From a virus, in the IMG/VR virus record IMGVR_UViG_3300030329_004037, positions 1 through 21,318 of that record: DNA of 21,318 nt; one strand, written 5' to 3'. How positions within the stretch are numbered: the stretch's first letter is position 1; each line of letters opens with the position of its first letter. Both the position numbers and the translations under genes were made by a program. Under the pieces are notes generated by a model. It searched no databases. It saw nothing but the letters and a program-made list of their open reading frames with translations, and was not told the origin of the DNA. Shown one piece after another: positions 1 to 21,318 of the stretch.

Positions 1-135
1 GAGCGCGTGATCTTCTCGGAGCTCTCCCGGCTCCCGCCATCGATGCGCCATCGACTGCTCGATCATCTCGAAGCACTCGACGCGGGTAAGGTGGTAGCTC
101 TGCCCTCAGGTACTGCTAAGAGGTCGGAGGGATGA
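1..135 (+). CDS. C-terminal end of upstream gene, probably small terminase subunit (partial)
   Basis: The first 44 codons read open in frame 1 and stop with TGA at 133-135, overlapping the ATG of the large terminase in an ATGA arrangement. The visible peptide starts ERVIFSELSRLPPSMRHRLL and continues as a charged amphipathic helix followed by a short polar tail. No motif is diagnostic. The only support for a small terminase subunit, the DNA-recognition part of the packaging motor, is its position directly before and translationally coupled to the large subunit, where that gene usually sits. It could equally be an unrelated small protein. The start lies outside the window. Confidence 0.5.
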   Translation, partial: ERVIFSELSRLPPSMRHRLLDHLEALDAGKVVALPSGTAKRSEG

Positions 136-1526
136 ATCTCGAAGCACTGGCCCGGGCCTCTCGGGGCTTGGCCTATCAGCTTGACCGAGACAGGCTGTCG
201 GCTTTCCGTCCGACGCCGCCGCAGCTCGACTGGCTCCAGGACAGATCACCGATCCGACTTCTTCGAGGCGCTAACCAGATCGGAAAGACGATGGCCGCCG
301 CCGCCGATCTGCACTGGCTATGCACGGGGACTCATCCATATAGACCGACGCGGAAACCACCGCTCGAAGTCTTCATGGTCTGTCATAGCTGGAGCCAGAG
401 CCAGACGATCATGCAGAAGATCCACGAGCTCGCCCCGATAGACGCTCTACATCCCGACACCGAGTATGTCCCTGGCAAGGGCTACCGCGGAAAGAATCCC
501 CAGCTCCACTATCGGAACGGGTCGATTATACACTTTCGGACCACGAGCCAGGGGACGCTGGCTCTGGCTTCGGCGACACTCGATCACGTTCACTGTGACG
601 AGCCAGTACCTGCGCACATATTTGGGGAGTTGGTCGCGAGATTGTTACGGAGAAGGGGCACAATGGGCATTAGCCTAACGCCGATCGGCCACGACCTGAC
701 TTATCTCCGAAAGATGGTCGACGAGGGCAGGGTATCGGACACCGTGGCTCCGCTGAACCTGGCTAACGTGACACCGCTCGGCGGACGTCCGCTGCTGACC
801 CAAGACGAGATCGATCGGGTGGCGTCTACTTATCTGCCGATCGATCGAGCTGCCCGGCTTGAGGGCTCGTGGGAAGTAGGGATCACCGAGGGCCGAGTCT
901 TCGACCATTTTAAGGAAGAGCACATCCACGCCGAGCTCGACAAGCGGAGAGAATGGCAGATCGCGATCGGCATCGACCACGGCTCCGACGCCGGCTCCCA
1001 GGTCGCACTCTTGATCGCCGTCGACGCTCGGACGCCGGGACGACCAGAGATCCACGTCCTCGATGAGTACACGTCAGGAGCAGCACCAGCCGAGAACCAC
1101 GCCCGAGGGATCCTGGCTATGATAGGGCGCCACGGGCTGACGTGGCAAAACGTCGATCGCTGGACCGGCGACATAGCGCACGGCGGAAAGAAGGGATCGC
1201 ATGGAAAGATGTCTAACTCTATGCTGATGGGCGCATTCGAGCGGGTGCTGGATTACCCGGTGCGCCGGCTACCCTGGCGGATCCGCACCGCATTTAAGCC
1301 ACGCTGGTCGGTCTACCATGGCGCCCAGATAATCCACGCCGCTATGTGTCAGGACCGCTTCCGGATCTCTCCACGCTGTAAGCAGACGATCGAGAGCCTA
1401 AAGCGCTGGCGATTCGAGAAGGATGGACCTTTCGTGCACGCGACCGACGCTCTCCGTTATGCTGTGGTTCCGATGGTCGACGATCGATATAGGTCCCGTC
1501 CGCCTGCTTCTGTGAGGATCTACTAA
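132..1526 (+). CDS. terL: Terminase large subunit (packaging ATPase and nuclease)
   Basis: This 464-residue protein is the motor that pumps DNA into the prohead and cuts the concatemer. The N-terminal ATPase has a Walker A loop RGANQIGKT (about residues 45-53), a Walker B strand DHVHCDE ending in D156/E157, and a coupling motif GISLTP (179-184). The C-terminal RNase H-like nuclease shows three acidic clusters typical of the family: AIGIDHGSD with D282, HVLDEY with D311/E312, and HATDALRYA with D439. The length is normal for the family, and all catalytic residues I looked for are present. It overlaps the upstream stop codon (ATGA) and its own TAA shares one base with the portal ATG, so the three genes are probably translationally coupled. 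It partners with the portal ring at the capsid vertex. Confidence 0.95.
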   Translation: MNLEALARASRGLAYQLDRDRLSAFRPTPPQLDWLQDRSPIRLLRGANQIGKTMAAAADLHWLCTGTHPYRPTRKPPLEVFMVCHSWSQSQTIMQKIHELAPIDALHPDTEYVPGKGYRGKNPQLHYRNGSIIHFRTTSQGTLALASATLDHVHCDEPVPAHIFGELVARLLRRRGTMGISLTPIGHDLTYLRKMVDEGRVSDTVAPLNLANVTPLGGRPLLTQDEIDRVASTYLPIDRAARLEGSWEVGITEGRVFDHFKEEHIHAELDKRREWQIAIGIDHGSDAGSQVALLIAVDARTPGRPEIHVLDEYTSGAAPAENHARGILAMIGRHGLTWQNVDRWTGDIAHGGKKGSHGKMSNSMLMGAFERVLDYPVRRLPWRIRTAFKPRWSVYHGAQIIHAAMCQDRFRISPRCKQTIESLKRWRFEKDGPFVHATDALRYAVVPMVDDRYRSRPPASVRIY

Positions 1527-3328
1527 TGAATTCCAGCCCGTACCCTATGAAGCCCGCCGCTCCAGATCTGGCCGTGCAAGATAGGTGGGACTACACATCG
1601 AGGGTCCGGGACATGCTCTCGGGGCAATGGACTCAGCATCTAGAGCGGGAGATGGCCCAGCACATCGGCCAGGACCGCCGCGCCGCGTGGGGTGTCCCGG
1701 ATCTCTCTTCTAATGTGCTGAAGTCTGTAGTGACTCAGCTATCGGTGCTCTATGACAGAGAGCCGACCGTATACGTGGATCAAGATCTCGACGGTGATAG
1801 CTTAGACGGTCTGCTGGGTCGAGACGGTCTGGTGACCCGTGCGGGGCTCTGGCCTCTAATGTCTCGGGTCCAGAAATTGGTGGTGGGCTGCCGGGAATAC
1901 TTCGTCCGCGTCGACGTCTCCGATAAGGGACTGACCTATCGGCCAGTAGCTCCGGATCTGGTGGTCGCCGAGGCCAGCCCAGATCTTCCGGACGTGCCGA
2001 CCTATATCCGCGAGCTCCAGCTTCGACGCCATCCCGAGACCGGGAAGCCGACGTGGATCTGGGAGGTGGCAGACATCCGGACACCCGAGGACGGCGGGCA
2101 CCCGCTCGGACCTCGCTGGGCTTTTCATCTATCCGACGAAGCGGGGCAGATGGGCCTCGACGTGACCGAGCTATTTACCGGCCAGCCGGATCAGAGCGGC
2201 GAGGCCTATCCATATCGGAAGGCAGACGGCTCTCCCTTCCTGCCATGGGTGCTCTACCACGCCGAGAAGAGCGGGAAGCTCTTCGACGCTTACCATAGCC
2301 GCGAGCTCATGACCGGAAGCCTCACAATTGGCGTGCTCTATACGATGTGGCTTCACGTCGTCCGAGATTGCTCGTGGCCTCAGCGCTATATGACTGGCGT
2401 ATCTATCGACGGTCTCGGCTATGAAGACACCGACACCAAGAGACGCCGAGCGGCGATCAGTATGGATCCCGCGTCGATTCTTATGCTTTCGGTGGATCCT
2501 GACGCCACCGGCCAGCCGATGGTCGGACAATTCCAGCCGGCGTCTGATGTCGGAGAGCTATTGGCGGCGATCTCGCAATATGAGCACCGGGTGGCCAGCT
2601 TCGCGGGGATCTCTCCCGCCGAGGTCTCCAGAGCAAACGGAGATCCGAGATCAGGCTATGCGCTGTCCATTACTCGAGAAGGACAGCGGGAAGCCCAGCG
2701 CCGCTTCGAGCCACAATTCCGCCGAGGCGATCAGCGACTGCTTGAGATCTCGGCGTGCCTGGTCAACCGGCACACTGGATCGAGCTATCCAGAGAGCGGC
2801 TATCGGGTACAGTACCAATCGATCCCGCTGTCGCCGAATGAGCTCCAGGCCCAGCGGGAAGATCTGATCGCAAAAATGGACGCGGGCCTACTGTCTCCGG
2901 TAGACGCCTATATGGCACTGAACCCCGGGATCGATCGCCCCGAGGCTATCTTCCGGCTTCAGGAGATTAGAGCCGAGACCCTGGCGCTATCTGCTCCGAC
3001 TGTACAGATGGACCCAGAAGATCAGGAAGCGCAGATCGACGCCGGCGAGCTCGCCGGAGAGAAGTCCGGACCTCTGCCAATTGTCGACGGCCCAGAGGGG
3101 CTATCCGATGTAGATAAGGCAGCCGACACTGCGCTGAATGGCGCGCAAGTTACCGCGGCAATGGGGATCGTTGTCGCAGTGTCCGAGGGCACTCTACCCA
3201 GAGACGCGGCGCTGGGCATGTTGTCCGAATTCTTCAATCTATCAACAGATCAGGCAGCTCAAATTATGGGCAGCGTCGGCAGCTCATTCTCGGCGCCACC
3301 AGAGCCAGATCCAAATTTCAACCGGTGA
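1526..3328 (+). CDS. Portal protein
   Basis: This 600-residue protein should form the dodecameric ring at one capsid vertex through which DNA enters and to which the tail attaches. Identification rests on position directly after the large terminase, on length, and on portal-like segments. These include SRANGDPRSGYALSITREGQ (about 368-387) followed by a long charged helix, a spacing typical of the portal stem and crown junction. The C-terminal helical region around 537-584 (LNGAQVTAAM, LPRDAALGML, FNLSTDQAAQIM) matches an extension I recall from other phage portals. Residues 85-90 (DQDLDG) form a short DxDxDG acidic loop that could bind a divalent cation. The start at 1526 shares a base with the terminase stop. 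It should contact the terminase, the scaffold and the adaptor encoded at 6351. Confidence 0.9.
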   Translation: MNSSPYPMKPAAPDLAVQDRWDYTSRVRDMLSGQWTQHLEREMAQHIGQDRRAAWGVPDLSSNVLKSVVTQLSVLYDREPTVYVDQDLDGDSLDGLLGRDGLVTRAGLWPLMSRVQKLVVGCREYFVRVDVSDKGLTYRPVAPDLVVAEASPDLPDVPTYIRELQLRRHPETGKPTWIWEVADIRTPEDGGHPLGPRWAFHLSDEAGQMGLDVTELFTGQPDQSGEAYPYRKADGSPFLPWVLYHAEKSGKLFDAYHSRELMTGSLTIGVLYTMWLHVVRDCSWPQRYMTGVSIDGLGYEDTDTKRRRAAISMDPASILMLSVDPDATGQPMVGQFQPASDVGELLAAISQYEHRVASFAGISPAEVSRANGDPRSGYALSITREGQREAQRRFEPQFRRGDQRLLEISACLVNRHTGSSYPESGYRVQYQSIPLSPNELQAQREDLIAKMDAGLLSPVDAYMALNPGIDRPEAIFRLQEIRAETLALSAPTVQMDPEDQEAQIDAGELAGEKSGPLPIVDGPEGLSDVDKAADTALNGAQVTAAMGIVVAVSEGTLPRDAALGMLSEFFNLSTDQAAQIMGSVGSSFSAPPEPDPNFNR

Positions 3329-3343
3329 CCATAGGGAGGGGCC

Positions 3344-3994
3344 ATGGAAAAAACCACAATTGAGGGCGTCGAATATTACCCGGCGGATCAGGTCGAGACG
3401 CTGATCCGCTCACGGCTTGCTAAAGTAAGCGAGAGAGCCAGGACCGCCGAGAGCCGACTCGAAGAGCTCGAAGGGCAGCTCGGGGAAGCTCAAGGAAAGA
3501 TCGGCGTTTCGGACACTCTGGCCGCCAGGGTTAAAGAACTGGAGGAGAGCCTGACCAGCGCCGAGGGTAAATATCAACGGCACACCGCGATCAGCTCTCA
3601 GGGCTTCACCGATCCGGACGTGCGCGATCTTATTGAGTGGGCTTACGACAGAGCCGCAGCTGGCGTTGACGACGCAGATCGGCCCGAGCTCGCGGCGTGG
3701 CTGGCATCCATGAAAGAGGACCCCAGCTCGGCGCCAGCAGCTCTCCGTCCGCACCTGTCAAGCTTGGCAGAGCCCGCACCGGCACCAGCCGAGCCGGCAG
3801 CCAAGCCAGAGCCCAAGAGCAGACCGATCCCCAAGTCTACCGCGGGACTTCAGCCGACCCCGGGCGGCAATATGACGATCGACCAAGCGCTGACGCTGGC
3901 CCAGCGTGGCGACATGTCAGCCTACAGACAGGTGCGGGAGGGACTTCGAGCCAGATACTCGAAGGGTAATCCCTTCTCGCCGGGTAAAGAATAG
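3344..3994 (+). CDS. Capsid scaffold protein
   Basis: The 216-residue product has the architecture of an internal scaffold that templates prohead assembly and then leaves. Residues about 25-80 are charged heptad-like helix (ERARTAESRLEELEGQLGEA), predicted coiled coil. Residues about 140-170 are a Pro/Ala/Lys linker (PAPAPAEPAAKPEPKSRP). The last 40 residues form a helix with a basic tail (YRQVREGLRARYSKG), the usual coat-binding element in scaffolds. It lies between portal and major capsid protein, the expected place. A strong ribosome site (GGGAGGGG, 3334-3341) precedes the ATG. No Ser-His-Asp protease domain is fused to it, unlike HK97-type protease-scaffold fusions. The last codons overlap a small perfect hairpin at 3961-3976. 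Confidence 0.82.
   Translation: MEKTTIEGVEYYPADQVETLIRSRLAKVSERARTAESRLEELEGQLGEAQGKIGVSDTLAARVKELEESLTSAEGKYQRHTAISSQGFTDPDVRDLIEWAYDRAAAGVDDADRPELAAWLASMKEDPSSAPAALRPHLSSLAEPAPAPAEPAAKPEPKSRPIPKSTAGLQPTPGGNMTIDQALTLAQRGDMSAYRQVREGLRARYSKGNPFSPGKE
3961..3976 (+). repeat. Perfect inverted repeat at the end of the scaffold gene
   Basis: GAAGGG and CCCTTC are separated by four bases (TAAT), giving a six-pair stem with a tetraloop in the last codons of the scaffold gene. No T run follows, so it is not an intrinsic terminator. It could be a processing or stability element between scaffold and capsid messages, or chance. Confidence 0.4.
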
Positions 3995-3997
3995 ACA

Positions 3998-4021: not shown

Positions 4022-4098
4022 GGACCTGACATAGCCGACGGGTCGCACCCGAAACAGCGTGACGGCGCCTATCACTACTAAGGGCGCCCGCGTGCGCC

Positions 4099-4112
4099 GA
4101 GGGTTTACCATG
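4099..4112 (+). promoter_or_regulatory. Ribosome binding site that sets the capsid start
   Basis: GAGGG at 4099-4103 lies six bases upstream of ATG 4110. The in-frame GTG at 4059 would add 17 residues but has no purine-rich site before it, and the added peptide is Arg/Lys-rich and unlike a capsid N-terminus. I therefore choose 4110. Confidence 0.7.
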
Positions 4113-5027
4113 ACCGCAATTCTCGAATCCAATCTATCCACCGATCTGCGCCTCGCGCAGATGATCGAAGCCGAGATCCGTATGATCTTGGCCGACACCG
4201 CATCGATCCGGAACACCGGCGCTGTGGCTTTCCTGGGTGACGTGGCCGGCATCGGCTCCGACACACTGCAGCTCCGCCTGGCCGGTCTGAACGGTACCGA
4301 CGAGATGGCATCTACCGCAGAGAACGCCGACGCATCGACCACCGCTCTTACCGACTCCTCGGTCACGGTGACCGCTGCCCGCTATGCTCTCCGCCGCGAT
4401 ATCTCCGATCTTGCCGTCATGACTGGAATGGGCGCAGATATCGATCCGTTCAAGCTGGCCGAGTCTATGGTCGCAAGCTTCGAGGCTGCTTTTATGTCGG
4501 CTCTCTCGACATCGATCGCCAGCTTCAGCAGCAGCGCCGGAACCTCCGGTGTCGACTGCTCGGTGGACGACTGGATGGACGCCATCGCGACTCTTGAGCT
4601 CGCTTCGGTGCCCGGTCCTTACTACGCTATGATCCATCCTCGCCAGCTGGCAGATCTCCAGGAGAGCCTCCGCAGCGAGAGCGGGCCTCTGTCTTTCGCT
4701 CCTGCTTCCGCTGAGCAGATCAAGATCCAGGGACCCGGTGCAGCCGGTAACTTCCTCGGCGTCGACATCTTCCAGAGCTCGAAGGTCACATCCTCCGGTG
4801 GTAACCGGAAGGGCGCGATCTTCGGTGCCGGTGCACTCGGGTACGTGGTCGGAACGCCTAAGCCGCTGGCCGGTGCCGGTGGAGAGGTTCGTCCCGCTGG
4901 CTCTCCGGTGGTGGTGGAATTCCAGAGAGATGCTTCCGCAGCTCTCACCGAGGTGGTCGGTCACGCCTATTTCGGTTGTGCCATCGTGGAGAATTCTCGC
5001 GGCGTGCTTCTCAGCACCGACGCCTGA
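4110..5027 (+). CDS. Major capsid protein (HK97-fold)
   Basis: Starting at ATG 4110 the product is 305 residues and would form the icosahedral shell. Features typical of HK97-fold coats are visible. There is a helical N-terminus, then RYALRRDISDLAVMTG (about 91-106) and a spine-helix-like segment DPFKLAESMVASFEAAFMSA (112-131). YYAMIHPRQLADLQESL (171-187) is followed by a late block, GVDIFQSSKV and GAIFGAGALGYVVG (217-247), matching the conserved 'G-x-D-I-x-x-S' and 'GA-x-F-G-x-x-ALGY' pattern of such coats. Gly codons are enriched in GGT and Ala in GCT compared with its neighbours, consistent with high expression. It follows the scaffold and is followed by a terminator-like hairpin. No long cleavable N-terminal delta domain and no protease are seen, so coat cleavage is not expected. 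Confidence 0.88.
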   Translation: MTAILESNLSTDLRLAQMIEAEIRMILADTASIRNTGAVAFLGDVAGIGSDTLQLRLAGLNGTDEMASTAENADASTTALTDSSVTVTAARYALRRDISDLAVMTGMGADIDPFKLAESMVASFEAAFMSALSTSIASFSSSAGTSGVDCSVDDWMDAIATLELASVPGPYYAMIHPRQLADLQESLRSESGPLSFAPASAEQIKIQGPGAAGNFLGVDIFQSSKVTSSGGNRKGAIFGAGALGYVVGTPKPLAGAGGEVRPAGSPVVVEFQRDASAALTEVVGHAYFGCAIVENSRGVLLSTDA

Positions 5028-8665: not shown

Positions 8666-9219
8666 TGGCGAAGAAGCACACGATCAAGGTCGGCGGTACT
8701 ACCATCGAGGTTAACGACCTCATGGATCGCATGGTCGAGCAAGTCCGAGAAGGCGCGAACGGTGAGATCGTCGAGGCTATGGAGGATATGCTCCGAGACT
8801 TGAAGAAAGACGCTCAGGATCAATGGCCGATCGGAAGGATCAGGAAGGCCACCGCCGGAGAGCCCTCGATGTCTTCAGAGCAACACAAGCGAGTGCGGGC
8901 AGAGATAAACAAAAAAGGCGGATCTCGAGCCGGCTACTTCGTAACAAATCCCCGAGAGCACTCGATCAACCTGTTCGAGCTGGAGACGAAAGTAACGACA
9001 AACGGGGTCGAAGTGAGCCTCGGAAACACCGCGTCGTGGGCATGGGCTGTCCGCTTCGGCAGAAAGGGCGGCTCTGGGGGCTTGGGAGTAAAGAGAGGGA
9101 AAAAGGCGTGGACCTCTTTAGTGAACAGACCCGGTCGAGAGTCCTCGAAGCAAGTAATAGCAGATATGGAAGAGCGGCTGATAGAGTTAGCGAACAAAGC
9201 TGCAAGGGATAAAAAATGA
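8665..9219 (+). CDS. HK97 gp10-like tail completion / minor tail protein
   Basis: I choose ATG 8665, overlapping the stop of the frameshifted chaperone (TGATG), over the in-frame ATG at 8647, which lacks a ribosome site. This gives 184 residues. The pattern resembles the HK97 gp10 family: an N-terminal helical part (LMDRMVEQVREGANGEIVEA), the loop DQWPIGRIRKAT at about 52-63 where relatives have 'P-x-x-T-G-x-L-R-x-S', and strands around VEVSLGNTASWAWAVRFGRK (115-134). A C-terminal helix, KQVIADMEERLIELANKAAR, completes it. Such proteins complete the tail end that joins the neck. Its place between chaperone and tape measure is unusual, because this gene normally precedes the tube gene. It ends in an ATGA overlap with the tape measure. 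Confidence 0.62.
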   Translation: MAKKHTIKVGGTTIEVNDLMDRMVEQVREGANGEIVEAMEDMLRDLKKDAQDQWPIGRIRKATAGEPSMSSEQHKRVRAEINKKGGSRAGYFVTNPREHSINLFELETKVTTNGVEVSLGNTASWAWAVRFGRKGGSGGLGVKRGKKAWTSLVNRPGRESSKQVIADMEERLIELANKAARDKK

Positions 9220-11765
9220 GCAGATCCACCGCTGTAGATTTTACGCTTCGAGCGAACATTACAGATCTCAAAAGCGAGCTCGGGAAGATCCCAGGCATCA
9301 CTGATAAAGAGGCTAAGAAGATGGCCTCGGGACTGGAGCGCCAGCTCCTGAGATCCGAGAAAGCAGCGAAGAAGACGGCCGCAGCTATGCGGGGAGATCT
9401 CGGGAAGTCCGTCGATCAAGCGGTAGAGAAATTCCGAAACTTAAGTACAGCCGTCGGGGTATCCGAGGAGAGCTTCGATTCGTTCAAGTCTAAAGCTGCA
9501 GAGATGGCCGGCTCGGTCGAGCAATTTAACGACGGGATCGGACAGGCTGACAGCTCTCTGTCCGCCATGGCTGTCGCCGTTCATAGCGTGAACCCAGAGC
9601 TCGCCGAGATGATGCGGAAGGGCGCCGACGCTGCTGGAGCCGTCGAGGCTGTGATCAATGCCGCCCGGAACGGACCCGCTGTCTTTGCTGCCCTCGCTGC
9701 TGCTACGGTCGCCGCATATGTGGCTCAGGAGCATTTTACGAAAGCGTCGAGAGAGTACGAAGAGCAAAACGAGAAAGCATCTAAGCAGCAGGACAAACTA
9801 CACGCCCAGCTGCGGCGACAGGAAGAGATCGGCGACACGCTGAGCGCTCAGTATGACGCTCAGGTATTGCAACTCAGCGAGACTGAGCAGTCTTATGCGG
9901 CAATGAATCAAAGGATTAGCCAGACAGTCGCCAGGCTGCAGAAGCTCGCAAGAAATACCCCGAATTACGGATCGATAGTTGAGCAGACGGAAGACTGGGC
10001 AGCCGAGCAATTTAAGCTCAACAAGGCCATTCGAGACACGACTCTGGCTCAGGAGAGATCAGCAAAGTCATTCCGAATCATGACAGCCGAGGCCAAAATT
10101 CACGAGTCAGCCCAGCTCGGTCTATTTGTTGCTCAGCGACGTCTTGCGGAGTCTACCAAATTCGCAAACAAGGAAGCGCTCAAGGAAGGCGCCCAGCGAT
10201 CATTCCTTGCAGCTCAAGCAAAAACGTTTGCAGTTCAGAAACAAAAACAAATCAGAGATCAGTACGAAGAAGCCAAATCAGCCGGCATTAATACAAAGGC
10301 CCTCGAACTGCATGGATCGCAATATTTCACACACGTTCAATTAATCAGGCAGGCAGCAGAAGACGCCGAGAAAGCCACCGGCAAATTTTACCAAGTGCTC
10401 GATTTTAGCGGTAATGTCGTCGATTTTGAAAAAAACGTCGAGACTCTTATTTCAGGATGGAACAGAACAGGGAGACAAGTTCAAGACACCGGCGCGTTTA
10501 TTCAAGATATGGGCACCGGCGAAATTATGACGCTTGCTCAAATTGTCCAAAAAACGCAGGCCGCCGACATGGCCCGCCGCGAATCAAGTAAACAGCGCCG
10601 GGCGCAGCTAAGAGCTGAGAAAGAGCTCGCCGACCAAGCTGCACTGGCAGAGCTGGACGCTCTCGCGTTTGAGCATGCCGCAGCAGTAGATAAGCAGAAG
10701 CTGGACGCTATGACCACCGAGGCCAAGCTGGCCGAGCTGGAGCGGCGAGCCCTTGCCGAGCTCGACGCTATGCAAGCGGGACTCGAGTCCCAGGAGCTCT
10801 TCTCGGCGGAAGCTCAAGAGAAGATCGAGCAAGCCAGATCCGACGTCCAGGAGAAATTCGAAGCAGAAAGAAAGCGAGGCGCGAAAGAAGAAGCCGATGC
10901 CCTCGTGTCTATATTCGAGAAGGCCGCTCAAGCTCTGCAAGCTCAGCAGATCGACTCCCCGCTGATATCAGACGTCGGCCTGGAAGCAATGGAGAAAGCA
11001 GGAGACACAGCGGCCAAATTGCGGCAAGAATTCAAGGCCGCAGGAGAGGACATCCCACCGCTCATTGAAGCTCAGCTTCAAGGCCTGGAGTCTATGGATC
11101 AGATGGCCGCCGCGATCCCTAAATTCCTGTCGAATTACGGACAGGCTCTAGCGGAATCACAGACGCAATTTGACGCAGTATGGAGCCAGATGGGCGCCAA
11201 AATTGAGGAGCAAGCCGCTCACCTGGGCACCTTCTTCTCCGGCGTCTCCGAGGCTGCGGGAGTAGCTGCGGACCTCATGGCTGACCAGAACAGAAAGGCA
11301 GCCATGAAAGCTTTTCGGATACAACAGGGCGCCGCAATATCTGAAGCCGTGATCAATGGAGCAGTCGCGATCTCCAAGGTGCAAGGTCAGCTCGGTGTGT
11401 TCTCGCCGTTCGCGATCGCTGGAATTGTGGCATCTACAGCGGCCCAGGTCGCGACCATTGCAGCAGAGCAACCGGCTTTCGATGTCGGCGGCGTGATCGG
11501 TGGCTCGATGGCCAGGACACCGGATCAGGTATCGATCCGAGCTCTACCCGGGGAAGCGGTGCTGAATCGTCAAGCGGTCGATCAGCTCGGAGAGGCCGGC
11601 GTCGACCGGCTGAATAACGGCGGATCACCGGGTGTCGTGGTCCGTCCGGTGTCTACCTTTAAACACTTTGATCGCTTCGCTCGCGCAGAATTTCGCCGGT
11701 CGGGCTACTTTAGGAGCCTCTTCGATCAAGATAGAGAATTTGCGGTCGGACAGCGGAGGTACTGA
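9216..11765 (+). CDS. Tape measure protein
   Basis: At 849 residues this is one of the longest genes here, and it sets tail length; the usual 1.5 angstrom per residue would give roughly 125 nm. It starts with an amphipathic region (MSRSTAVDFTLRANITDLKS), then long helical sequence rich in Ala, Glu, Gln and Lys with a hydrophobic segment at about 154-171 (PAVFAALAAATVAAYVAQ). Charged coiled coils run from about 440 to 580. The C-terminus is characteristic: a second hydrophobic stretch at about 728-750 (FAIAGIVASTAAQVATIA), then FDVGGVIGG and LPGEAVLNRQAVDQLGEAGV. It follows the chaperones and is coupled to the tip gene by TGATG. Its middle differs in base composition from the rest of the window. 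Confidence 0.92.
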   Translation: MSRSTAVDFTLRANITDLKSELGKIPGITDKEAKKMASGLERQLLRSEKAAKKTAAAMRGDLGKSVDQAVEKFRNLSTAVGVSEESFDSFKSKAAEMAGSVEQFNDGIGQADSSLSAMAVAVHSVNPELAEMMRKGADAAGAVEAVINAARNGPAVFAALAAATVAAYVAQEHFTKASREYEEQNEKASKQQDKLHAQLRRQEEIGDTLSAQYDAQVLQLSETEQSYAAMNQRISQTVARLQKLARNTPNYGSIVEQTEDWAAEQFKLNKAIRDTTLAQERSAKSFRIMTAEAKIHESAQLGLFVAQRRLAESTKFANKEALKEGAQRSFLAAQAKTFAVQKQKQIRDQYEEAKSAGINTKALELHGSQYFTHVQLIRQAAEDAEKATGKFYQVLDFSGNVVDFEKNVETLISGWNRTGRQVQDTGAFIQDMGTGEIMTLAQIVQKTQAADMARRESSKQRRAQLRAEKELADQAALAELDALAFEHAAAVDKQKLDAMTTEAKLAELERRALAELDAMQAGLESQELFSAEAQEKIEQARSDVQEKFEAERKRGAKEEADALVSIFEKAAQALQAQQIDSPLISDVGLEAMEKAGDTAAKLRQEFKAAGEDIPPLIEAQLQGLESMDQMAAAIPKFLSNYGQALAESQTQFDAVWSQMGAKIEEQAAHLGTFFSGVSEAAGVAADLMADQNRKAAMKAFRIQQGAAISEAVINGAVAISKVQGQLGVFSPFAIAGIVASTAAQVATIAAEQPAFDVGGVIGGSMARTPDQVSIRALPGEAVLNRQAVDQLGEAGVDRLNNGGSPGVVVRPVSTFKHFDRFARAEFRRSGYFRSLFDQDREFAVGQRRY
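10060..10822 (+). other. AT-rich, GATC-free patch inside the tape measure gene
   Basis: From about 10060 to 10560 codons shift to A/T endings (AAA, ATT, TTT, GAA AAA AAC at 10428-10436), unlike the surrounding GC-rich code. Between the GATC at 10315 and the next at 10823 there is none in about 500 bases, against roughly 18 per kb in the first 1.5 kb. The reading frame stays open, so this looks like a mosaic segment or an indel-derived tape measure module rather than an inserted gene. It corresponds to about residues 280-535. Confidence 0.6.
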
Positions 11766-14700
11766 TGGCCAATGACAAGAGCCCGAGCCACGCCCGAGGT
11801 CTATTAATTGCGGACCCTCGGATCTCTGCTTCGTCTATCTGGTCAGCCCAGAGCACACTGACCCAGGCGGGACCCGAGCCAGGGATCCCAGCTCCACAGG
11901 GTAGCTACGATCTGAACCTGATCAGCAGGGGAAGCCAAGTGGCAGATCAGGCCATCCGGATCCGTGGCCAGAGATCCGGCGGCGTCGGCATCCGAGGCAA
12001 TGGCGGGATCGTATGGAAGAAGAGCGGCGACAGCTCTTCGAGCTATCGCGGCAAGGACTCAATGGGGGCGATCACTCACTGGGAGGCCGTGACCTGGACC
12101 GACGGCACCGGGGATCCGGCATCGACTACCGATCCATATATCTTGGCCCTTGCCAGCGGGGTCACTTTGCTGGCCTACAGCGCCACGAGCTCGGCGGGCA
12201 ATTATGAAGTCCACGTCAAGGCTCGGTCCGCTTCGGGGACGTGGTCTTCCGCGGTGGTGGTCTACTCGACAGCTACAGCACCGACAGCGGCGATCTCGAG
12301 CTCGTTTTCTCCGACGATGTACCAGCTCCCCGACTCTCGGGTAGTTCTGCTCTGTAAGCTCGAAGAGTCGACGACATGTCAGGTCCAGGTCTACGAAAGC
12401 ACCGACGGCGGGGCGAGCTGGACGCAGCAATCAAGGAGCGCGCTACCTACCGCGATCAGTCTGGACAGCGGCTCTGATGGCTGGGTAGTTCGAGAGCTCG
12501 TGGTCGGCTACCAGAATGCCCAGGTGCTGCTCTTAATTTCGGCAGTGTCGAACGAGACGCACAGCGCCACCACGGGTCGCGAGTACCGTCAGGCGCTGTT
12601 TCAATATGCCAGCGACTCCTCGGGCCTTGACTTCGTAGCTATCCGAGAGCCGACGAGCAGGGTTAACGATCGGCAGCTTACGTCGAGTAATTCCGCCGCG
12701 TCTCCGCTTCGCTTCCTGGCCGGCTCTCCGTCCATCGTGGCTTATGGCGGTTTCTTTTATATATTCTATACAACCGACCACGCCGCCGGGACCACGAGCG
12801 TAAACCCAACAGCTCACGATCTCGGCGTTGATCGACTCGGCTCCGCTTTCCGCCACATAGGCACATCGGATCACCTGGGCACTATTGATGTAGACGTGAA
12901 ATTAGGCACTATCAGCTCCACCGATGGCGCTGTGATTAAAGATAGTAATCGGCACATTACCGAGTCCGACATCACAGCGACAGTATCCGACGACGGCGTC
13001 TTTTATGTGCTGGCCCGGGCACTCGATGAGACTCAACAGATCATGCTGATTCGAAGCACGGATCTCTGCCAGACCTTCGAGAGCGTCGGAGCTAATGCCG
13101 AAATTGCAGATTCTATCTATGATCGCGGGATCGTGTTCGCTTCCGGAGATGGCTCGTCCTACCTCACGCGGCTATCGGTGGCCGCGGTCCAGGGCCGGCT
13201 CTTGCTGGCCTCGAACATGTCCGCGGATCCGGGTAATGAAGACAATTCCACGGTCTGCACTTACCTGGGCGGATGGTCCCAGGTCACCGTCCCGCCGCTG
13301 TATAGCTACAGCAATGGCGCCGAGATGGGCGGCTACAATGTGAATTGGCTCCCGATCGACATTCCGGCAGCGGTCAGCGGGTGGACCGGCTCAGCGACCG
13401 GCGGAACCACGACGGCCACGCTTACCAATGGGGGCTTGATCGTTACGTCGGCGGGGACCGGTAATAGGTACTACCACCGGACGCCTACCAGCACGACGGC
13501 GCAGGGGTTGATCGCTCGCTGGGCGCTGACTTGTAGCCACGGCGACTCGGGGTCTGCTGAGGTGGGCTGCGTCTTCCGGGTCGCTGACAGCAGCCACGAC
13601 TCGAAGCTTGAGATCCGATATACCGCCACGGGCTTCTCGGTCATCGACGCGAACGACTCCGGAGTAGAGGGATCCGTTACGCTGGACATGACCACCGCGA
13701 GAGAATTCTTTCTGGCCTTCACCGGCGGAGCGGCGCCAGCATATCGGCTCTATTATCGGACGCACGACAGCGACAGCGATCGACAGTGGACCAAATTTAA
13801 CAGCGGCGCCGCCGCGGCTCTATCAGCAGGAAGCGCCACGAGTAACCTCGTCCAGTGGGGGCACATAGCCAACCAGACCGGCGGAGCTATGAACAGCTCA
13901 AAGTGGTTCGAATTTCATCTCGGCTCCGGCGCCCAGACGGGCCTCGGGCCGACTGCGATCGATACGAACCCCGATGATTTAATGCCCGGACGGATAGGCT
14001 CGGGGACTGGGCAGACCTTTATCGATGCGGGGCTTTCGGTCTCGGCGAGCTCTGGCCCGGTTCGCGTCGGCGATACTTTCCACGTCGACACCCGATACAC
14101 CTACCCGATCGAGCGGATCTTCCACGCCGAGAGCCCGAGCCCTCGGGTCCGATGGCGCTCAACGTCCACCGCTGAGCATACGATAGCGCTCCAGCTCGAC
14201 GCGATAACCACCGAGGCGAGTCTGGCCGGGAACGATACGATCGCGATCGCTCTTCAGAATCCTAACTTTAGAAATTGCACTCTTGAGGGCTACAACGTCG
14301 GGACGACATCGTGGGACACGATCGCGGCCATCGATAATAGCCAGGGCATCGGCGGGATCCAGTACGTCCGGAAAGCTGGGAGCGTGGCACCGGGTCCCGC
14401 GAGCTCGGAGAATTTCTACCTGCATACAAACGAGATGGCCGGCGGATGGTTCGGACTGCGGAGCACGACGATCCGGAAGATTAAGGCGAACACCGATGGC
14501 CAGTGGGCGGGCGGCGTAGCCAATCGAAAACTTCCGACCATACTGATCGACGACGCTTCGGCTTCAGATCTGACAGCTCATGACGCCGGCTTTTTTATCC
14601 CTCCGGTGGTGGTAGCGGTGGCCAAGCTCAACGGGTCGATCTATGGAGCCTATCGGCTGAAGATCCCAAGCCAGAGCGCCGGCGGCGGATCTTACTTCGA

Positions 14701-15205
14701 GCTCGGCGGGCTCGTGATCGGCTGGGTTGAATATTTCGCTAAGCAATACTCCTGGGGACGGGTCCAGACCTCGACAGCGAACACCGAGCTAACGCGCCAG
14801 CTCGACGGCACGGTGACCTCGAAGGTCTACGGGCCAGCCTATCGCACGGTCAAATTCTCGTGGACCGATGGCGTCGACGTGTCCCAGGTCGAGGGCGATA
14901 CCTTCGATCCGGACTACATTAAAAACAGCACCGAGGGAGCCGCGGAGGTGGTCGGCACGGTGGCCGAGACCCCTTATATGATCGAGGGCTTGACGTCTTT
15001 ACTGAACCCCGACGGCGGACCGTCGAGAGCGGTGGTCTATCTACCGTCAATCCCTAAGAGCGGGAACACCATAATTTTAAACAGAAAGCACCAGAGCCTC
15101 GTGGGGCGGGTCACGTCACCAGCTCAGATCGAGACCATCCAAGGCGACGAGCTCACCGACGAGGTCTATCGGATTGCCTCGGTGACCATCGAGGAGAGCG
15201 TATAG
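11765..15205 (+). CDS. Large tail-tip protein with Asp-box (sialidase-like) and jelly-roll-like domains
   Basis: This 1146-residue protein is coupled to the tape measure (TGATG) and precedes the hub, the usual place for distal tail or tip proteins. The first 100 residues (ISRGSQVADQAIRIRGQRSG) look like a tail-attachment segment. Residues about 115-510 resemble a beta-propeller. They contain a classical Asp-box, STDGGASW (about 211-218), and a weaker copy, STDLCQTF (about 430-437), as in sialidases and other carbohydrate-recognising propellers. Residues about 535-680 look like a concanavalin/LamG-type jelly roll (ARWALTCSHGD, EVGCVFRVADSSHDSKLEIR). The last 270 residues are beta-rich and end with structural-looking strands. 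I cannot see a full sialidase active-site set (Arg triad, Tyr/Glu), so binding is safer than hydrolysis. Host-surface glycan recognition is inferred. Confidence 0.75.
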   Translation: MANDKSPSHARGLLIADPRISASSIWSAQSTLTQAGPEPGIPAPQGSYDLNLISRGSQVADQAIRIRGQRSGGVGIRGNGGIVWKKSGDSSSSYRGKDSMGAITHWEAVTWTDGTGDPASTTDPYILALASGVTLLAYSATSSAGNYEVHVKARSASGTWSSAVVVYSTATAPTAAISSSFSPTMYQLPDSRVVLLCKLEESTTCQVQVYESTDGGASWTQQSRSALPTAISLDSGSDGWVVRELVVGYQNAQVLLLISAVSNETHSATTGREYRQALFQYASDSSGLDFVAIREPTSRVNDRQLTSSNSAASPLRFLAGSPSIVAYGGFFYIFYTTDHAAGTTSVNPTAHDLGVDRLGSAFRHIGTSDHLGTIDVDVKLGTISSTDGAVIKDSNRHITESDITATVSDDGVFYVLARALDETQQIMLIRSTDLCQTFESVGANAEIADSIYDRGIVFASGDGSSYLTRLSVAAVQGRLLLASNMSADPGNEDNSTVCTYLGGWSQVTVPPLYSYSNGAEMGGYNVNWLPIDIPAAVSGWTGSATGGTTTATLTNGGLIVTSAGTGNRYYHRTPTSTTAQGLIARWALTCSHGDSGSAEVGCVFRVADSSHDSKLEIRYTATGFSVIDANDSGVEGSVTLDMTTAREFFLAFTGGAAPAYRLYYRTHDSDSDRQWTKFNSGAAAALSAGSATSNLVQWGHIANQTGGAMNSSKWFEFHLGSGAQTGLGPTAIDTNPDDLMPGRIGSGTGQTFIDAGLSVSASSGPVRVGDTFHVDTRYTYPIERIFHAESPSPRVRWRSTSTAEHTIALQLDAITTEASLAGNDTIAIALQNPNFRNCTLEGYNVGTTSWDTIAAIDNSQGIGGIQYVRKAGSVAPGPASSENFYLHTNEMAGGWFGLRSTTIRKIKANTDGQWAGGVANRKLPTILIDDASASDLTAHDAGFFIPPVVVAVAKLNGSIYGAYRLKIPSQSAGGGSYFELGGLVIGWVEYFAKQYSWGRVQTSTANTELTRQLDGTVTSKVYGPAYRTVKFSWTDGVDVSQVEGDTFDPDYIKNSTEGAAEVVGTVAETPYMIEGLTSLLNPDGGPSRAVVYLPSIPKSGNTIILNRKHQSLVGRVTSPAQIETIQGDELTDEVYRIASVTIEESV

Positions 15206-16891
15206 ATGCCGCGGCGGCTGTCATCGATCCCAGGCTCCGAAGTGGTCTGGCTGTTAGAGCTCCGCTTCGGCGGGCGTGACTTCCGATGGGCGACCGATCA
15301 CATATCGCTATCGAATGCCAGCGGGGACTCTCTGGACTTCTCGGGTAGTCTCGACCTCGGCAATTACTCGGAGAGCCTTGACCGCTTCACGCACACCGCA
15401 GACGCTCAGAGCGTCTCCTTAGAGGTGGTCTTCGACGATATCAGCGTGGCTTCCCAGGTCTCGAAGGGCTACCATCTCGGAGCCGTCGAGGGCGAGATCT
15501 CGATTGTTCAGGTGCTGGACGGAAGCCCGCAGCAGACCTACGAGCAGCGGTCGATCGTGGCTCGTGGCTCGGTCGCTGATCCGCAGTTCGGACAGCCAGA
15601 CCGGCCAGAAGGGTATATGGCTTTCACGCTTGAAGGTCTGCTGATCGAGGACTCAGGCCAATTCTTATCGCCGACTCATGCGGTGACCGAGGACACTTTC
15701 GGAAGCCTCCCGGCATGGTCGGACAGTAACCCGCACATAGACAAGCCCTATCCGATCGTCTTCGGTCGCCCGGGCCGATACCGGAAAGCAGACTCGGACG
15801 GAACGGTGACCAGCACCGACGGCAGCCCGGCTTATATCTTAGAGCTCCAGCCGCCAGGAGGGACCGAGGACAAAACCGGGAGTCTGGTAATTGCCGGGCA
15901 CCACGTCGTTGCGTCGTCGGTACGGGTCAAGGCCGAGCGGACCGGAGAGACCCACGTAATTTTTAACAGCTACGACAATCTCGGTCGCCCGGTCGCGATC
16001 AATGATTACTCGGACATTGACGGATCGGGCACGAATTCCTCATTCTCTAACGCGGTGCTGGAAGAGCGGGAATGGTGGATCGGCTGGACCCGTTCGGGCG
16101 GGTATGGCATTGAGAACCCGTGGCACTCTGGACAAGGGCTGGCCCGAGCTGGGGACTTGATCCGCTGGGCTCTGACCTATTCGACGCTCCCGGTAGACTG
16201 GGGCGCGTGGCAAGCGGCATCGGATACGCTGAACGCTTACGAATTCTCGGGGTACATCACCGAGCGGGTAACGCCGTGGGACTGGCTCCAGCCGCTGCTA
16301 GAGCTGCTGCCGGTGACAGTGCGCCGCGGCGTGGACGGGATCTATCCAATCCTTCACGACACCGGATCGGACGCATCCCGAGCGGTCAAGCTGACCACGT
16401 CTCCGGACTTCCAGCGAACAAGCCCAGTGCAGATCGAGGGGAATATTCAGGACATATACAACCGGATCGAGATCCACCACGCTTACTCGGGAAAGAATAA
16501 CGCCGCTCGGACTTACTCGGCCCTCGGGCAATTCGAGAGCTACGACTTCGAGCCCGAGACCGGCTCGAATTCTATCGTCCGCAGATCTGAAGACCGGCAC
16601 GGCTCCCGGCTACTCTCGAAGGAATGCGCCTATCTATATGAGCGGGCCACCGCGGATCGGATCTGCCACGACCTCTCTCGCCGCCATGCTCTCTTTTCGA
16701 GGACCGTCCAGTACCGGGCCGCCCAGAGCTATGTCTGGTTGGAGCTCGGGGATCTCGTGGCTATTACAGATAGCGATCTGGGCTACTCGGATCAGGTCGC
16801 CCAGATTATCGCGAGAGCCTGGGATGGCGACTCGTGGATCTTCACAATAGTGATAGATCAAGATCCCGAGCGCGACACGCTGGGATCCTGA
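15206..16891 (+). CDS. Baseplate hub / tail-associated protein
   Basis: This 561-residue protein begins directly after the TAG of the tip gene with no spacing. Its N-terminus (VVWLLELRFGGRDFRWATDH, then SGDSLDFSGSLDL) matches the beta start of hub proteins that continue the tube at the tip. The middle (about 140-260) has FTLEGLLIEDSG, HIDKPYPIVFGRPGRY and a set of strands. Residues about 320-390 carry WALTYSTLPVDWGAW and the segment VTPWDWLQPLLELLPVTVRR. Late blocks DIYNRIEIHHAYSG and SYVWLELGDLVAIT are also typical of such hubs (tape measure, distal tail, hub order). No lysozyme or peptidase motif is visible. It probably forms a trimer that plugs the tube and anchors the fiber. Its stop lies within an inverted repeat at 16880-16911. 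Confidence 0.75.
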   Translation: MPRRLSSIPGSEVVWLLELRFGGRDFRWATDHISLSNASGDSLDFSGSLDLGNYSESLDRFTHTADAQSVSLEVVFDDISVASQVSKGYHLGAVEGEISIVQVLDGSPQQTYEQRSIVARGSVADPQFGQPDRPEGYMAFTLEGLLIEDSGQFLSPTHAVTEDTFGSLPAWSDSNPHIDKPYPIVFGRPGRYRKADSDGTVTSTDGSPAYILELQPPGGTEDKTGSLVIAGHHVVASSVRVKAERTGETHVIFNSYDNLGRPVAINDYSDIDGSGTNSSFSNAVLEEREWWIGWTRSGGYGIENPWHSGQGLARAGDLIRWALTYSTLPVDWGAWQAASDTLNAYEFSGYITERVTPWDWLQPLLELLPVTVRRGVDGIYPILHDTGSDASRAVKLTTSPDFQRTSPVQIEGNIQDIYNRIEIHHAYSGKNNAARTYSALGQFESYDFEPETGSNSIVRRSEDRHGSRLLSKECAYLYERATADRICHDLSRRHALFSRTVQYRAAQSYVWLELGDLVAITDSDLGYSDQVAQIIARAWDGDSWIFTIVIDQDPERDTLGS

Positions 16892-17304: not shown

Positions 17305-17305
17305 T

Positions 17306-19045
17306 ATGGGGCTGAATCGACCAAGTGTCACAGGCGGCGGCCAGGGTACAGTCAGCGGCGTAACAGCCGGATCGGCTATCTCTGGCGGCGGAACCTCGGG
17401 GACCGTATCCGTAGCCCTCGACGTTAGCGAGCTATCCGATGGAGTGGTAGCCACCGCGGACAAGGTTCTCCTGCTGGACTCCGACGGGTCGACGCAGATC
17501 CTTGAGTCCGTGGACGATCTGGCCAAAAAGCTTCCGGCCCTGGTGACCGAGGCCGCGGTCGACGTCGGCTCTGATTATTTGCTGTTCCTGGACGGTGGCT
17601 CGACTGGAGAGTGCAAGAAAGAGGCCCTGACCGATCTCGCTTCAGCTCTGGCCGGCTCGGGGCTCTCTTCTTCGTCTGGGGTTCTGTCTATCAGCGAGAC
17701 CGGCGATATCTCAGAGGTGACCGCTGGCGTCGGTCTGTCCGGCGGTGGCTCGTCCGGTGCGGTGACCTTGACGCTCGATCTGTCCGAGCTCAGCGCGGTT
17801 ACGCCGACGGCTACCGATAGCTTCGCTACTCTGGATTCGGACGGGTCGACAGAGCAGCGCACGACCATAACAGATCTGAGCAGCTTTCAGGCCGGCTCGG
17901 GGCTTTCTGCTTCTAGCGGCGTGCTCTCGGTCGACTCGATTACTTCGGTGGGCGCTGTCGACTCTGGCTCGATTACCTCCGGATTCGGAAGCATTGACAC
18001 CGGCAGCTCGGCTATCACGACCACCGGAGACCTAAGCGTCGGAGACGCCACCGTGACGGGTGGCGATCTTAGCTTCGGCAATGGCCAACACGCGACCGTC
18101 TCGGTCGCTGCGGTATCTGGTACGGATACAGCGGGCAAGAGCCTAACAGTCAAGGGCGGGCAGGGTACCGGAAGCGGAGCCGGTGGAGACATCGTCTTTC
18201 AGACCGCTAACGCCGGCAGCTCGGGCAGCAGCGCTAACAGTCTGGCCACCGCTTTGACGCTGAGCGATGATCTCTCGGCTACCTTCGGGGGCCATGTCGC
18301 CATCCCTGAGAGCTCTTCATACAAGATCGGCAGTAATGCGATCCTGTCGGACAGCAGCGGGGCCTGCACTCTGTCCAACGTCGACGCACTCGACGCTACG
18401 ACCGAGGCCACGATCGAGGGCGCGATCGATACCCTGGCGAACCTGACCTCGGCGAGCTCGCTGGCCACCGTCGGGACCATTACCTCGGGGACGTGGCAAG
18501 GGACCGCGATCGCTCGGAGCTATATCGCTGCCGACGCCATCGACGGCTCGAAGATCGACGACGACGCGATCGACTCCGAGCACTACGTCGACGGCTCGAT
18601 CGATACCGCACATATCGCCGATAATCAGGTCACCTTGGCTAAGATGGCCGGCATCACCCGCGGGTCTATCATTATCGGGGACGCCAGCGGAGACCCGGCT
18701 CTCTTGGCTGCGGGCTCGGCAAATTACGTCCTGACATCGGACGGGACCGATATCGCATGGGCCGAGGCCTCGGGGGGCGGGAGTACCGACCTAAACGGTC
18801 TAAGCGCTGCAGTCGTGGACGTGGCCGCGGACAGCATCGGGATCATTGACGCAAACGATAGCAACGCCAGCCGGAAAGAGTCTATCGCGGATCTTGTCTC
18901 GGCGATGGCCGGGACCGGAATTAGCGCGTCGAGCGGGGTTATGAGCCTCGATGTCGGAGCTTCAGCGACGGGGTTCGTGAGTGGCGGCGTCAGGACTACT
19001 AACGATCAAGCTGGCGAGATCCTCGCTATGCAAGTTTTCAGCTAG
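17306..19045 (+). CDS. Tail fiber with internal repeats
   Basis: The 579-residue protein is very rich in Ser, Gly, Thr, Asp and Ala, as in trimeric fibers. A module with the pattern 'L-x-D-x-x-x-S ... DLxSxxAGSGLSxSSGVLSV' occurs at about 86-129, 168-209 and 505-548, with a shorter copy at 50-79. A second module, VTAGxxxSGGGxSGxVxxxLDxSEL, occurs at about 19-43 and 139-163. The middle carries DGSIDTAHIADNQVTLAKMA (about 429-448) and 'SGTWQGTAIARSYIAADAI' (394-412), which I recall from fibers of many aquatic phages. The end lacks any chaperone peptidase motif. It should reach from the tip to the host surface, with neighbouring proteins adding the binding head. A GGGGAGAG ribosome site precedes the ATG. 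Confidence 0.85.
   Translation: MGLNRPSVTGGGQGTVSGVTAGSAISGGGTSGTVSVALDVSELSDGVVATADKVLLLDSDGSTQILESVDDLAKKLPALVTEAAVDVGSDYLLFLDGGSTGECKKEALTDLASALAGSGLSSSSGVLSISETGDISEVTAGVGLSGGGSSGAVTLTLDLSELSAVTPTATDSFATLDSDGSTEQRTTITDLSSFQAGSGLSASSGVLSVDSITSVGAVDSGSITSGFGSIDTGSSAITTTGDLSVGDATVTGGDLSFGNGQHATVSVAAVSGTDTAGKSLTVKGGQGTGSGAGGDIVFQTANAGSSGSSANSLATALTLSDDLSATFGGHVAIPESSSYKIGSNAILSDSSGACTLSNVDALDATTEATIEGAIDTLANLTSASSLATVGTITSGTWQGTAIARSYIAADAIDGSKIDDDAIDSEHYVDGSIDTAHIADNQVTLAKMAGITRGSIIIGDASGDPALLAAGSANYVLTSDGTDIAWAEASGGGSTDLNGLSAAVVDVAADSIGIIDANDSNASRKESIADLVSAMAGTGISASSGVMSLDVGASATGFVSGGVRTTNDQAGEILAMQVFS
17561..18950 (+). repeat. Diverged protein-level repeats in the fiber
   Basis: Three copies of a roughly 42-residue module lie within this span, at codons near 17561, 17807 and 18818. 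The clearest shared DNA is GCCGGCTCGGGGCT, present at both 17652 and 17891. Synonymous sites differ between copies, so duplication is not recent. Confidence 0.6.
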
Positions 19046-19054
19046 AGGCATATC

Positions 19055-20277: not shown

Positions 20278-20480
20278 TGTCAGATATTATCTATGTCTCC
20301 CGCGTGAGGGAGGTCGAATATACGCACTTTTTAGAGGACGGAGACACTCCCAGGATGCCCGGGCGGATGGTGGAGATCTTCATACCAGCCGAACGGAGAG
20401 AAGACGTCGATCGGAATGACGCGCAGCGGCGAGAGCTGACAGCAATCCTTGAGGCCGCGATCGTGGCGGATGGTGGGTAG
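20277..20480 (+). CDS. 67-residue hypothetical protein
   Basis: I choose ATG 20277, which overlaps the preceding stop (TGATG), over an in-frame upstream ATG at 20202 that lies inside the preceding gene. The product MSDIIYVSRVREVEYTHFLE... has an N-terminal beta-like half with a Pro-rich turn (DGDTPRMPGRMVEIFIPAE) and a C-terminal helix (AQRRELTAILEAAIVADGG). No family is recognisable. It lies between the last tail gene and the holin-like gene, so it could belong to the tail or to lysis control. It carries no membrane segment. Confidence 0.65.
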   Translation: MSDIIYVSRVREVEYTHFLEDGDTPRMPGRMVEIFIPAERREDVDRNDAQRRELTAILEAAIVADGG

Positions 20481-20481
20481 C

Positions 20482-20730
20482 ATGTCAGCCACGCAGATCG
20501 ATAAGGTCTGGGCCGTTACTAACGGGATCCGGAAAGACGTCAGCGAGATCAAGATCTGTATAGCTCGACTGGATGAGCGCTCAGCAGCCCGAGAGGCCCA
20601 TGTCGAGCTCCAGTCCATCCGGCTCGACAAGATGGAGCACCGGCTCCAGCGTCTCGATCTGAAGGTAGCCGCCGCCATGGGCATGGTCGCCTTGATCTCG
20701 TATGGCCTGCAGCTGCTGGTGAGTGTGTGA
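20482..20730 (+). CDS. Putative holin-like protein (XhlA-type layout)
   Basis: From ATG 20482 the product is 82 residues: a charged helix with coiled-coil character (about 14-60; KDVSEIKICIARLDERSAAR, LDKMEHRLQRLDLK) followed by one hydrophobic segment at about 62-82 (VAAAMGMVALISYGLQLLVS) that ends the protein. That layout is seen in XhlA-type phage holin partners, which anchor to the inner membrane. The next gene, a candidate cell-wall enzyme, overlaps by four bases (GTGA), and such pairs are common lysis cassettes. A single helix alone is weak proof of a holin. It could be an anchor or regulator of lysis. An upstream in-frame GTG at 20473 would add three residues. Confidence 0.6.
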   Translation: MSATQIDKVWAVTNGIRKDVSEIKICIARLDERSAAREAHVELQSIRLDKMEHRLQRLDLKVAAAMGMVALISYGLQLLVSV

Positions 20731-21314
20731 GCTACCTCCCGCCACTGCTTCGATCTGTCCAGGCTCTCGGCTATGCCGTCTTCGACGGTCCGCGAGACTT
20801 CGATCTAAACCTGGTGGCCGTCCGTAGCAGGGAGACACATCGCTCTCCGGACAAGTACCTTGACGATTTTCACGTCATATGGAAGGAGGGCGGTCACTGG
20901 CGACAATGGAGCGCCGCGTGTAGTACAAGCCCCGGGGCCTACTATCTCGCCCACCCTATGCGGCCCTCGGAGGGCTGCGCTATCATGGCGCCGGGACAGT
21001 ACCGAGGAGCCTATAAGCGAGGCCTCCACAAGGGCACCGAGGCTCTCCGACAGCACAGGCCGGTGAAGTATTACCGAGACAATGACAGAGACGGAGAGCT
21101 GGACCTGGACGAGAGCACGTTACGGACTGGGGTGGCTTATCTGAACATCCATAGAGGCGGGGTAGGCGATCGGGTTGGACGCTGGAGTGCCGGCTGCACT
21201 GTCCTCCATCCTGATGATATGCTGCACCTCGTGAAATTGTGCGACTCTCAGATTTCCCATAATCCAGGTTGGGACACCTTTACTTACACCCTACTTGATG
21301 AGGCCCAGCTATGA
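20727..21314 (+). CDS. Putative endolysin with L,D-transpeptidase-like His/Cys motif and EF-hand-like loop
   Basis: The gene starts with GTG overlapping the holin stop and has no clear ribosome site, so coupling is likely. The product is 195 residues. The C-terminal half carries LNIHRGGVGDRVGRWSAGCT (139-158), in which H142 and C157 are spaced somewhat like the His and Cys of YkuD-type L,D-transpeptidases; the second His of 'SHGC' is replaced by Ala (SAGC). Just before it, DNDRDGELDLDE (118-129) fits the canonical 12-residue EF-hand loop (D118, D120, D122, G123, E129). I recall phage proteins with this same RD..D..LD ... NIHR ... WSAGC order near lysis genes. No signal peptide is seen, consistent with release through a holin. 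Peptidoglycan cleavage is inferred from context and motif. Confidence 0.7.
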   Translation: MSYLPPLLRSVQALGYAVFDGPRDFDLNLVAVRSRETHRSPDKYLDDFHVIWKEGGHWRQWSAACSTSPGAYYLAHPMRPSEGCAIMAPGQYRGAYKRGLHKGTEALRQHRPVKYYRDNDRDGELDLDESTLRTGVAYLNIHRGGVGDRVGRWSAGCTVLHPDDMLHLVKLCDSQISHNPGWDTFTYTLLDEAQL

Positions 21315-21318
21315 AGCT
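21311..21318 (+). CDS. Start of next gene (partial)
   Basis: ATG at 21311 overlaps the endolysin stop codon (ATGA) and opens a frame of M-K-x before the window ends. Nothing can be said about the product. The overlap style matches the rest of the operon, so a further lysis gene such as a spanin is possible but unsupported. Confidence 0.4.

What the first reader, a model, noticed from the sequence alone, without database searches (positions are those of the whole stretch)
1..21318. Strong over-representation of GATC across the window
By hand I count 27 GATC words in bases 1-1520, about 18 per kb, where base composition near 58% GC predicts about 6. Other stretches look similar, for example 18361-18600 with six. 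Synonymous choice follows it. In the terminase gene plus the first 157 portal codons, Asp is GAT in 12 of 18 cases when the next base is C, but in only 6 of 29 cases otherwise. This suggests selection or mutation bias acting on DNA rather than protein. Possible readings are a host or phage GATC methylation system, binding of a GATC-dependent protein, or a genome-wide word bias shared with the host. Part of the codon effect may be a simple preference for T before C, since His codons also show CAT before C.
Basis: partly seen in the sequence, partly recalled or inferred. Interest (0 to 1): 0.72.

Follow-up and report, generated by a model that had tools for sequence, protein, structure and literature searches.

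The report
GATC-rich word bias in phage genome
This phage fragment really does carry the four-letter word GATC almost four times more often than its base composition predicts, but the excess is a spread-out compositional habit that its phage family gains and loses repeatedly, not a located element, and nothing here shows that a methylation system causes it.

Summary
Observation confirmed. The 21,318-b window, a viral record covering a tailed-phage structural region, has 289 GATC: 3.8x base composition, 1.35x a maximal-order Markov expectation, and 277 in genes against 148±9 after synonymous-codon shuffling (z=14; top 4-mer). About half of the excess over codon usage is ordinary junction-neighbour preference (GA/TC/AT); the rest is word-level. 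GATC is not alone: AATT is 2.3-2.4x, CTAG 0.15x. Sites are randomly spaced and turn over between the window and its 85%-identical relative L001. Bacterial segments of similar GC reach 2-3.6x base composition, but 0 of 95 match the codon-controlled excess. In 76 relatives sharing the terminase, GATC runs from 0.05x to 6.3x, with at least 12 changes on the tree. No methylase was found in the window; L001 encodes one, but methylase presence does not track GATC density. Best reading: a fast-changing genome-wide word bias, probably host-shaped (host unknown). A known kind: mycobacteriophage B3 phages are similar.

The parts
1..21318 (.). 289 GATC words, 13.6/kb, spread over the whole record; no cluster, largest gap 508 b starting at 10315
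   Evidence: CV of gaps 0.93 against 0.986±0.058 for random placement.
1..21318 (.). 74 AATT words (2.1x base composition, 2.45x Markov), the companion enriched palindrome; 6 CTAG (0.08x / 0.17x)
132..1526 (+). Terminase large subunit gene, 17.9 GATC/kb; used for the tree of relatives
   Evidence: Pfam Terminase_6N 1.9e-9, phrog_2 8.5e-19; GATC density.
1526..3328 (+). Portal-position gene (600 aa), 15.5 GATC/kb
   Evidence: Position after the terminase; 82% identity to L001; no Pfam/PHROG hit.
3344..3994 (+). Probable scaffold gene
   Evidence: Weak Phage_scaffold hit 0.0033; 71% to L001.
4101..5027 (+). Major capsid protein gene, 15.1 GATC/kb
   Evidence: Pfam Phage_capsid_4 1.1e-10; phrog_544 8.7e-9.
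9216..11765 (+). 849-aa gene, tape-measure-like by length and position, 11.4 GATC/kb; holds the largest GATC gap
   Evidence: Length and position only; no family hit.
11765..16891 (+). Two long tail genes, 1146 aa (BNR_2-like stretch) and 561 aa (Phage-tail_3); 13.1 and 15.4 GATC/kb
20727..21314 (+). Endolysin-like gene; lowest GATC density in the window (5.1/kb)
   Evidence: phrog_3000 1.1e-25, phrog_33083 endolysin 7.5e-12.

Best explanation
The GATC excess is a genome-wide compositional word bias of this phage lineage. Shown: it has two layers. The first is a preference for the dinucleotides GA/TC and AT, which raises GATC about 2-3.5-fold over base composition and is common in bacteria of 55-70% GC. 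The second is a word-level preference for GATC and AATT over AATC and GATT, written mainly into synonymous third positions (GAT|C Asp, xxG|ATC). It acts statistically on density, since sites turn over freely. Shown: it changes quickly in the phage family, including near-total purging in some lineages. Inferred: the bias is set by context-dependent mutation, repair or weak selection in the replication environment, mainly by matching the word usage of the present host, and host switching explains the repeated gains and losses. In the purged lineages, restriction or a similar GATC-directed defence is the likely cause (inferred).
For: Dispersed over the genes, random spacing (CV 0.93 vs 0.99±0.06). 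GATC shared/union between window and L001 orthologues is 0.30, similar to control words (TCGA 0.27, AATT 0.27, GAGC 0.25), so density is kept but sites are not. Not unique to GATC: AATT is stronger at the word level. Base-composition ratio of GATC in 95 bacterial segments: median 1.86, 95th percentile 3.45, max 4.54; at GC 55-65% median 2.1, max 3.58. Bacterial chromosomes with both GATC and AATT raised and CTAG depleted exist: genome G475, 120 kb: GATC 1.21 (Markov) / 3.42 (base composition), AATT 1.93/2.42, CTAG 0.12 (alphaproteobacterial by its CtaD). Tree of 76 terminases: at least 12 changes between enriched and not enriched; 25 of 76 phage loci enriched, 4 avoiding. Phage-host tetranucleotide co-variation is established (PMC1360066, PMC5224470; abstracts).
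Against: The host is not identified, so matching to the host is untested. The codon-controlled excess (1.86) exceeds all 95 bacterial segments (max 1.73), which come from only two phyla. The best chromosomal match, G475, correlates only 0.54 in word residuals, differs in AACT (Markov ratio 1.89 vs 0.40 in the window) and lacks the Asp-specific shift. So some phage-specific component is possible.
Confidence: 0.62

Rival explanations
1. GATC density is raised by selection because the sites are marked (adenine methylation or phosphorothioation, by phage or host) and the mark is useful, for example against GATC-directed restriction or for mismatch-repair or replication control; lineages without the mark purge the word.
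For: L001, the 85%-identical relative, encodes a PF01555 beta-class methyltransferase upstream of the terminase (5.1e-33; truncated by the contig end); a 58%-identical enzyme sits in the most GATC-rich clade (L038 record). Nearly complete GATC purging in L066, L068, L069 (0.05-0.12x) shows GATC-directed pressure in this family. [quoted passage not shown]
Against: Specificity of these enzymes is unknown. PF01555 enzymes also occur in non-enriched (L027 ratio 0.77) and GATC-avoiding (L030 ratio 0.40) members, and the enriched fragments L015, L016, L022 show none (they are fragments). Phages carrying the same enzyme type at about 50% identity (P-HM1, CGphi29, PHB04) have GATC at 0.95-1.0 of Markov, and phiCh1, whose methylase modifies GATC (PMC7230728), has 0.91. 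It does not explain AATT.
Confidence: 0.2
2. The effect is only codon usage plus a general T-before-C junction preference, with no GATC-specific component.
For: Junction dinucleotides explain a large part: the frame-0 expectation rises from 48.0 to 65.4 of 91 and the frame-2 expectation from 81.6 to 105.2 of 148. Ala, Pro, Gly, Thr and His also favour T before C.
Against: Excess remains after dinucleotide and trinucleotide terms (z 3.6 and 4.8); Asn and Tyr show no shift; Markov ratio 1.35, z 5.2.
Confidence: 0.1
3. GATC sites serve a DNA-binding protein at defined places (packaging, replication or condensation).
For: None beyond the density itself.
Against: Random spacing, little phase at 10-11 b, low site conservation between window and L001, no extended hexamer context beyond the core.
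Confidence: 0.03

Closest known systems
Mycobacteriophage subcluster B3 (GATC and GGATCC over-represented; PMC4841201)
   Same: GATC about four times expectation, raised genome-wide, in one lineage of a phage cluster whose sister lineages lack it.
   Different: B3 also favours GGATCC; here no hexamer context beyond GATC is favoured (GGATCC 18 vs 17.4), and AATT is raised too. The B3 records were not in the collection under the accessions tried, so metrics were not compared directly.
HF1-group haloviruses (GATC and CTAG absent; PMC7230728)
   Same: Same word under strong pressure in phages; parallels the purged relatives L066, L068, L069.
   Different: Opposite direction from the window.
Haloarchaeal chromosomes with GATC methylase, and phage phiCh1
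   Same: GATC 3.25x base composition in phiCh1.
   Different: In phiCh1 this is all lower-order bias: Markov ratio 0.91, against 1.35 here.
Phage-host tetranucleotide matching (PMC1360066, PMC5224470)
   Same: Predicts that phage word usage follows the host.
   Different: Not testable here without the host.

Membership tests
GATC-over-represented phage genomes (as mycobacteriophage B3) | GATC about 4x zero-order expectation | tested here: met
   3.76x.
GATC-over-represented phage genomes (as mycobacteriophage B3) | Increase is genome-wide, not one region | tested here: met
   7-25/kb in all genes but the last; random spacing. Only 21 kb is held.
GATC-over-represented phage genomes (as mycobacteriophage B3) | GGATCC raised as well (a B3 detail) | tested here: not met
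   GGATCC 18 observed, 17.4 expected from pentamers. So the window shows the same kind of phenomenon, not the same case.
Phage with its own GATC methylation | Adenine methylase gene present | tested here: inconclusive
   None among the window proteins scanned; PF01555 enzyme in relative L001, in a region the window does not cover.
Phage with its own GATC methylation | Enzyme specificity is GATC | not testable with these tools
   Closest solved enzymes include CcrM, DpnA-type and others, matched over the catalytic parts.
Phage with its own GATC methylation | GATC adenines modified in virion DNA | not testable with these tools
   No read data.
Host-matched word usage | Host shares GATC and AATT excess | not testable with these tools
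   Host unknown; terminase searches in 392 Planctomycetota, 120 Pseudomonadota and 190 genomes of the class of G475 found no close relative.

The most novel reading that the evidence does not exclude
In this phage family GATC density is a selected, switchable trait: lineages that mark GATC accumulate the word and lineages facing GATC-directed restriction purge it, so word density records the phage's modification state.
Probability: 0.15. Interest if true: 0.6.

Novelty: new member of a known kind. Interest (0 to 1): 0.3.

Why it matters
GATC-rich phages are known but unexplained. This family offers relatives at both extremes (0.05x to 6.3x), which makes it a natural comparison set for asking whether phage word density follows host composition, restriction or DNA modification. 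For the window alone, the practical message is that the raw 4x figure overstates the case: bacteria of the same GC average about 2x.

Tried and rejected
Prophage relatives to name the host: two genome-contig scans gave only distant hits in a Gammaproteobacteria and a Phycisphaerae MAG; searches of 702 genomes found nothing close. Nearest isolate phages share 23-29% terminase identity, no host clue; the endolysin-like protein resembles crAss-like and Pseudoalteromonas phage proteins; the tape-measure-like gene has no match. Methylase presence versus GATC: no clean association. HIP1-like GCGATCGC was considered: only 3 copies. GANTC and CCWGG counts were taken and not pursued. The site-binding idea was rejected on spacing and turnover. 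In one search one short gene (20493-20730) was entered out of frame; searches use corrected or independent gene sets and agree.

Full report
What the window is. The window is a whole 21,318-b virus record, likely a fragment, with the late structural genes of a tailed phage on the + strand: terminase, portal-position gene, probable scaffold, capsid, tail genes and an endolysin-like gene. GC is 59.5%.

The observation. GATC occurs 289 times, 3.76 times the base-composition expectation and 1.35 times the expectation from its trinucleotides. Shuffling synonymous codons across the genes gives 148±9 against 277 observed, z 14, the largest of all 256 tetramers. The Asp log-odds exceed the pooled His/Asn/Tyr value by 1.87±0.31.

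How much is word-specific. A log-linear model of third-base choice was fitted with codon usage, then junction dinucleotides, then junction trinucleotides. Expected GATC in frame 0 rises 48.0, 65.4, 70.9 against 91 observed; in frame 2 it rises 81.6, 105.2, 117.5 against 148; frame 1 shows nothing. So roughly half of the excess over codon usage is ordinary neighbour preference and the rest belongs to the word. GATC is not alone: AATT is 2.45x its Markov expectation and stays the strongest frame-2 word in the full model (23 vs 7.0), while AATC, GATT and CTAG are depleted.

Arrangement. Gaps between sites look random, there is little helical phase, and no flanking base is favoured beyond the core. 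In five orthologous genes of window and L001 the GATC overlap is 34 of 113 sites, close to control words. Density persists while sites turn over. That argues against defined binding sites.

Comparison with bacteria. In 95 chromosome segments from Planctomycetota and Pseudomonadota, GATC is often above base composition (median 1.86x; 2.1x at GC 55-65%, maximum 3.58x there), so the headline fourfold figure is only moderately unusual. The codon-controlled ratio 1.86 is not reached by any (maximum 1.73), and the Markov ratio 1.35 by one. An alphaproteobacterial genome, G475, shows GATC and AATT both raised and CTAG depleted across 120 kb, though without the Asp-specific shift. The panel covers two phyla only.

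Comparison with relatives. Eighty viral loci encode related terminases. GATC relative to base composition runs from 0.05x (L069) to 6.3x (L040). With codon control 25 of 76 loci are enriched and 4 avoid the word. On the terminase tree this needs at least 12 changes. Within one clade L016 and L023 are rich (13/kb) and their near neighbours L019 and L021 are not (7/kb). The trait is labile. Many loci are fragments of 4-12 kb, so single values are noisy; L001 itself falls just under the cut-off used for 'enriched' (ratio 1.37).

Methylation. No methylase was found in the window. L001, whose proteins are 71-86% identical, has a PF01555 enzyme 3.6 kb upstream of its terminase, in a region that the window does not cover. 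Fifteen of 50 related records carry PF01555 and two carry a Dam-type PF02086 enzyme (L060, L062), both with unremarkable GATC. PF01555 occurs in rich, neutral and avoiding members. Unrelated phages with the L001 enzyme type, and phiCh1 with a known GATC methylase, have no word-level excess (PMC7230728). Methylation is therefore not excluded but not indicated.

Conclusion. The best-supported reading is a genome-wide, fast-changing word bias, part dinucleotide and part word-level, most likely following the host. Host matching is inference, because no host was found. The closest precedent is mycobacteriophage subcluster B3, which also has GATC at four times expectation genome-wide (PMC4841201).

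Noticed in passing
L066, L068, L069 (whole loci): Related phages with almost no GATC (1, 3 and 2 copies; 0.05-0.12x), and in L068/L069 almost no AATT; word purging typical of restriction avoidance, in the same family as the GATC-rich members.
   Followed up: partly
L036, L038, L039, L040: A clade with 15-18 GATC per kb (5-6x base composition), richer than the window; its 30.5-kb record carries two PF01555 methylases side by side.
   Followed up: partly
L001:1-705: PF01555 methyltransferase truncated at the contig end, 49-50% identical to the 'dam' of Prochlorococcus phages P-HM1/P-HM2 and to enzymes of CGphi29 and PHB04.
   Followed up: partly
window 1-21318: AATT 2.45x Markov expectation and Asn AAT used in 21/27 cases before T; CTAG only 6 copies.
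   Followed up: partly
window 20727-21314: Endolysin-like protein whose best isolate matches are crAss-like Bacteroides phages (41%) and Pseudoalteromonas phages (34%); its gene also has the lowest GATC density, which may point to recent acquisition.
   Followed up: no
L203, L206: Two very GC-rich (73-75%) Planctomycetota segments with strong Asp-specific GATC excess (Markov 1.41 and 1.30), the closest chromosomal parallel for the codon effect.
   Followed up: no
L010-L012: Relatives at 46% GC that keep GATC at 3.2x yet have CTAG enriched 1.7x, opposite to nearly all other loci.
   Followed up: no
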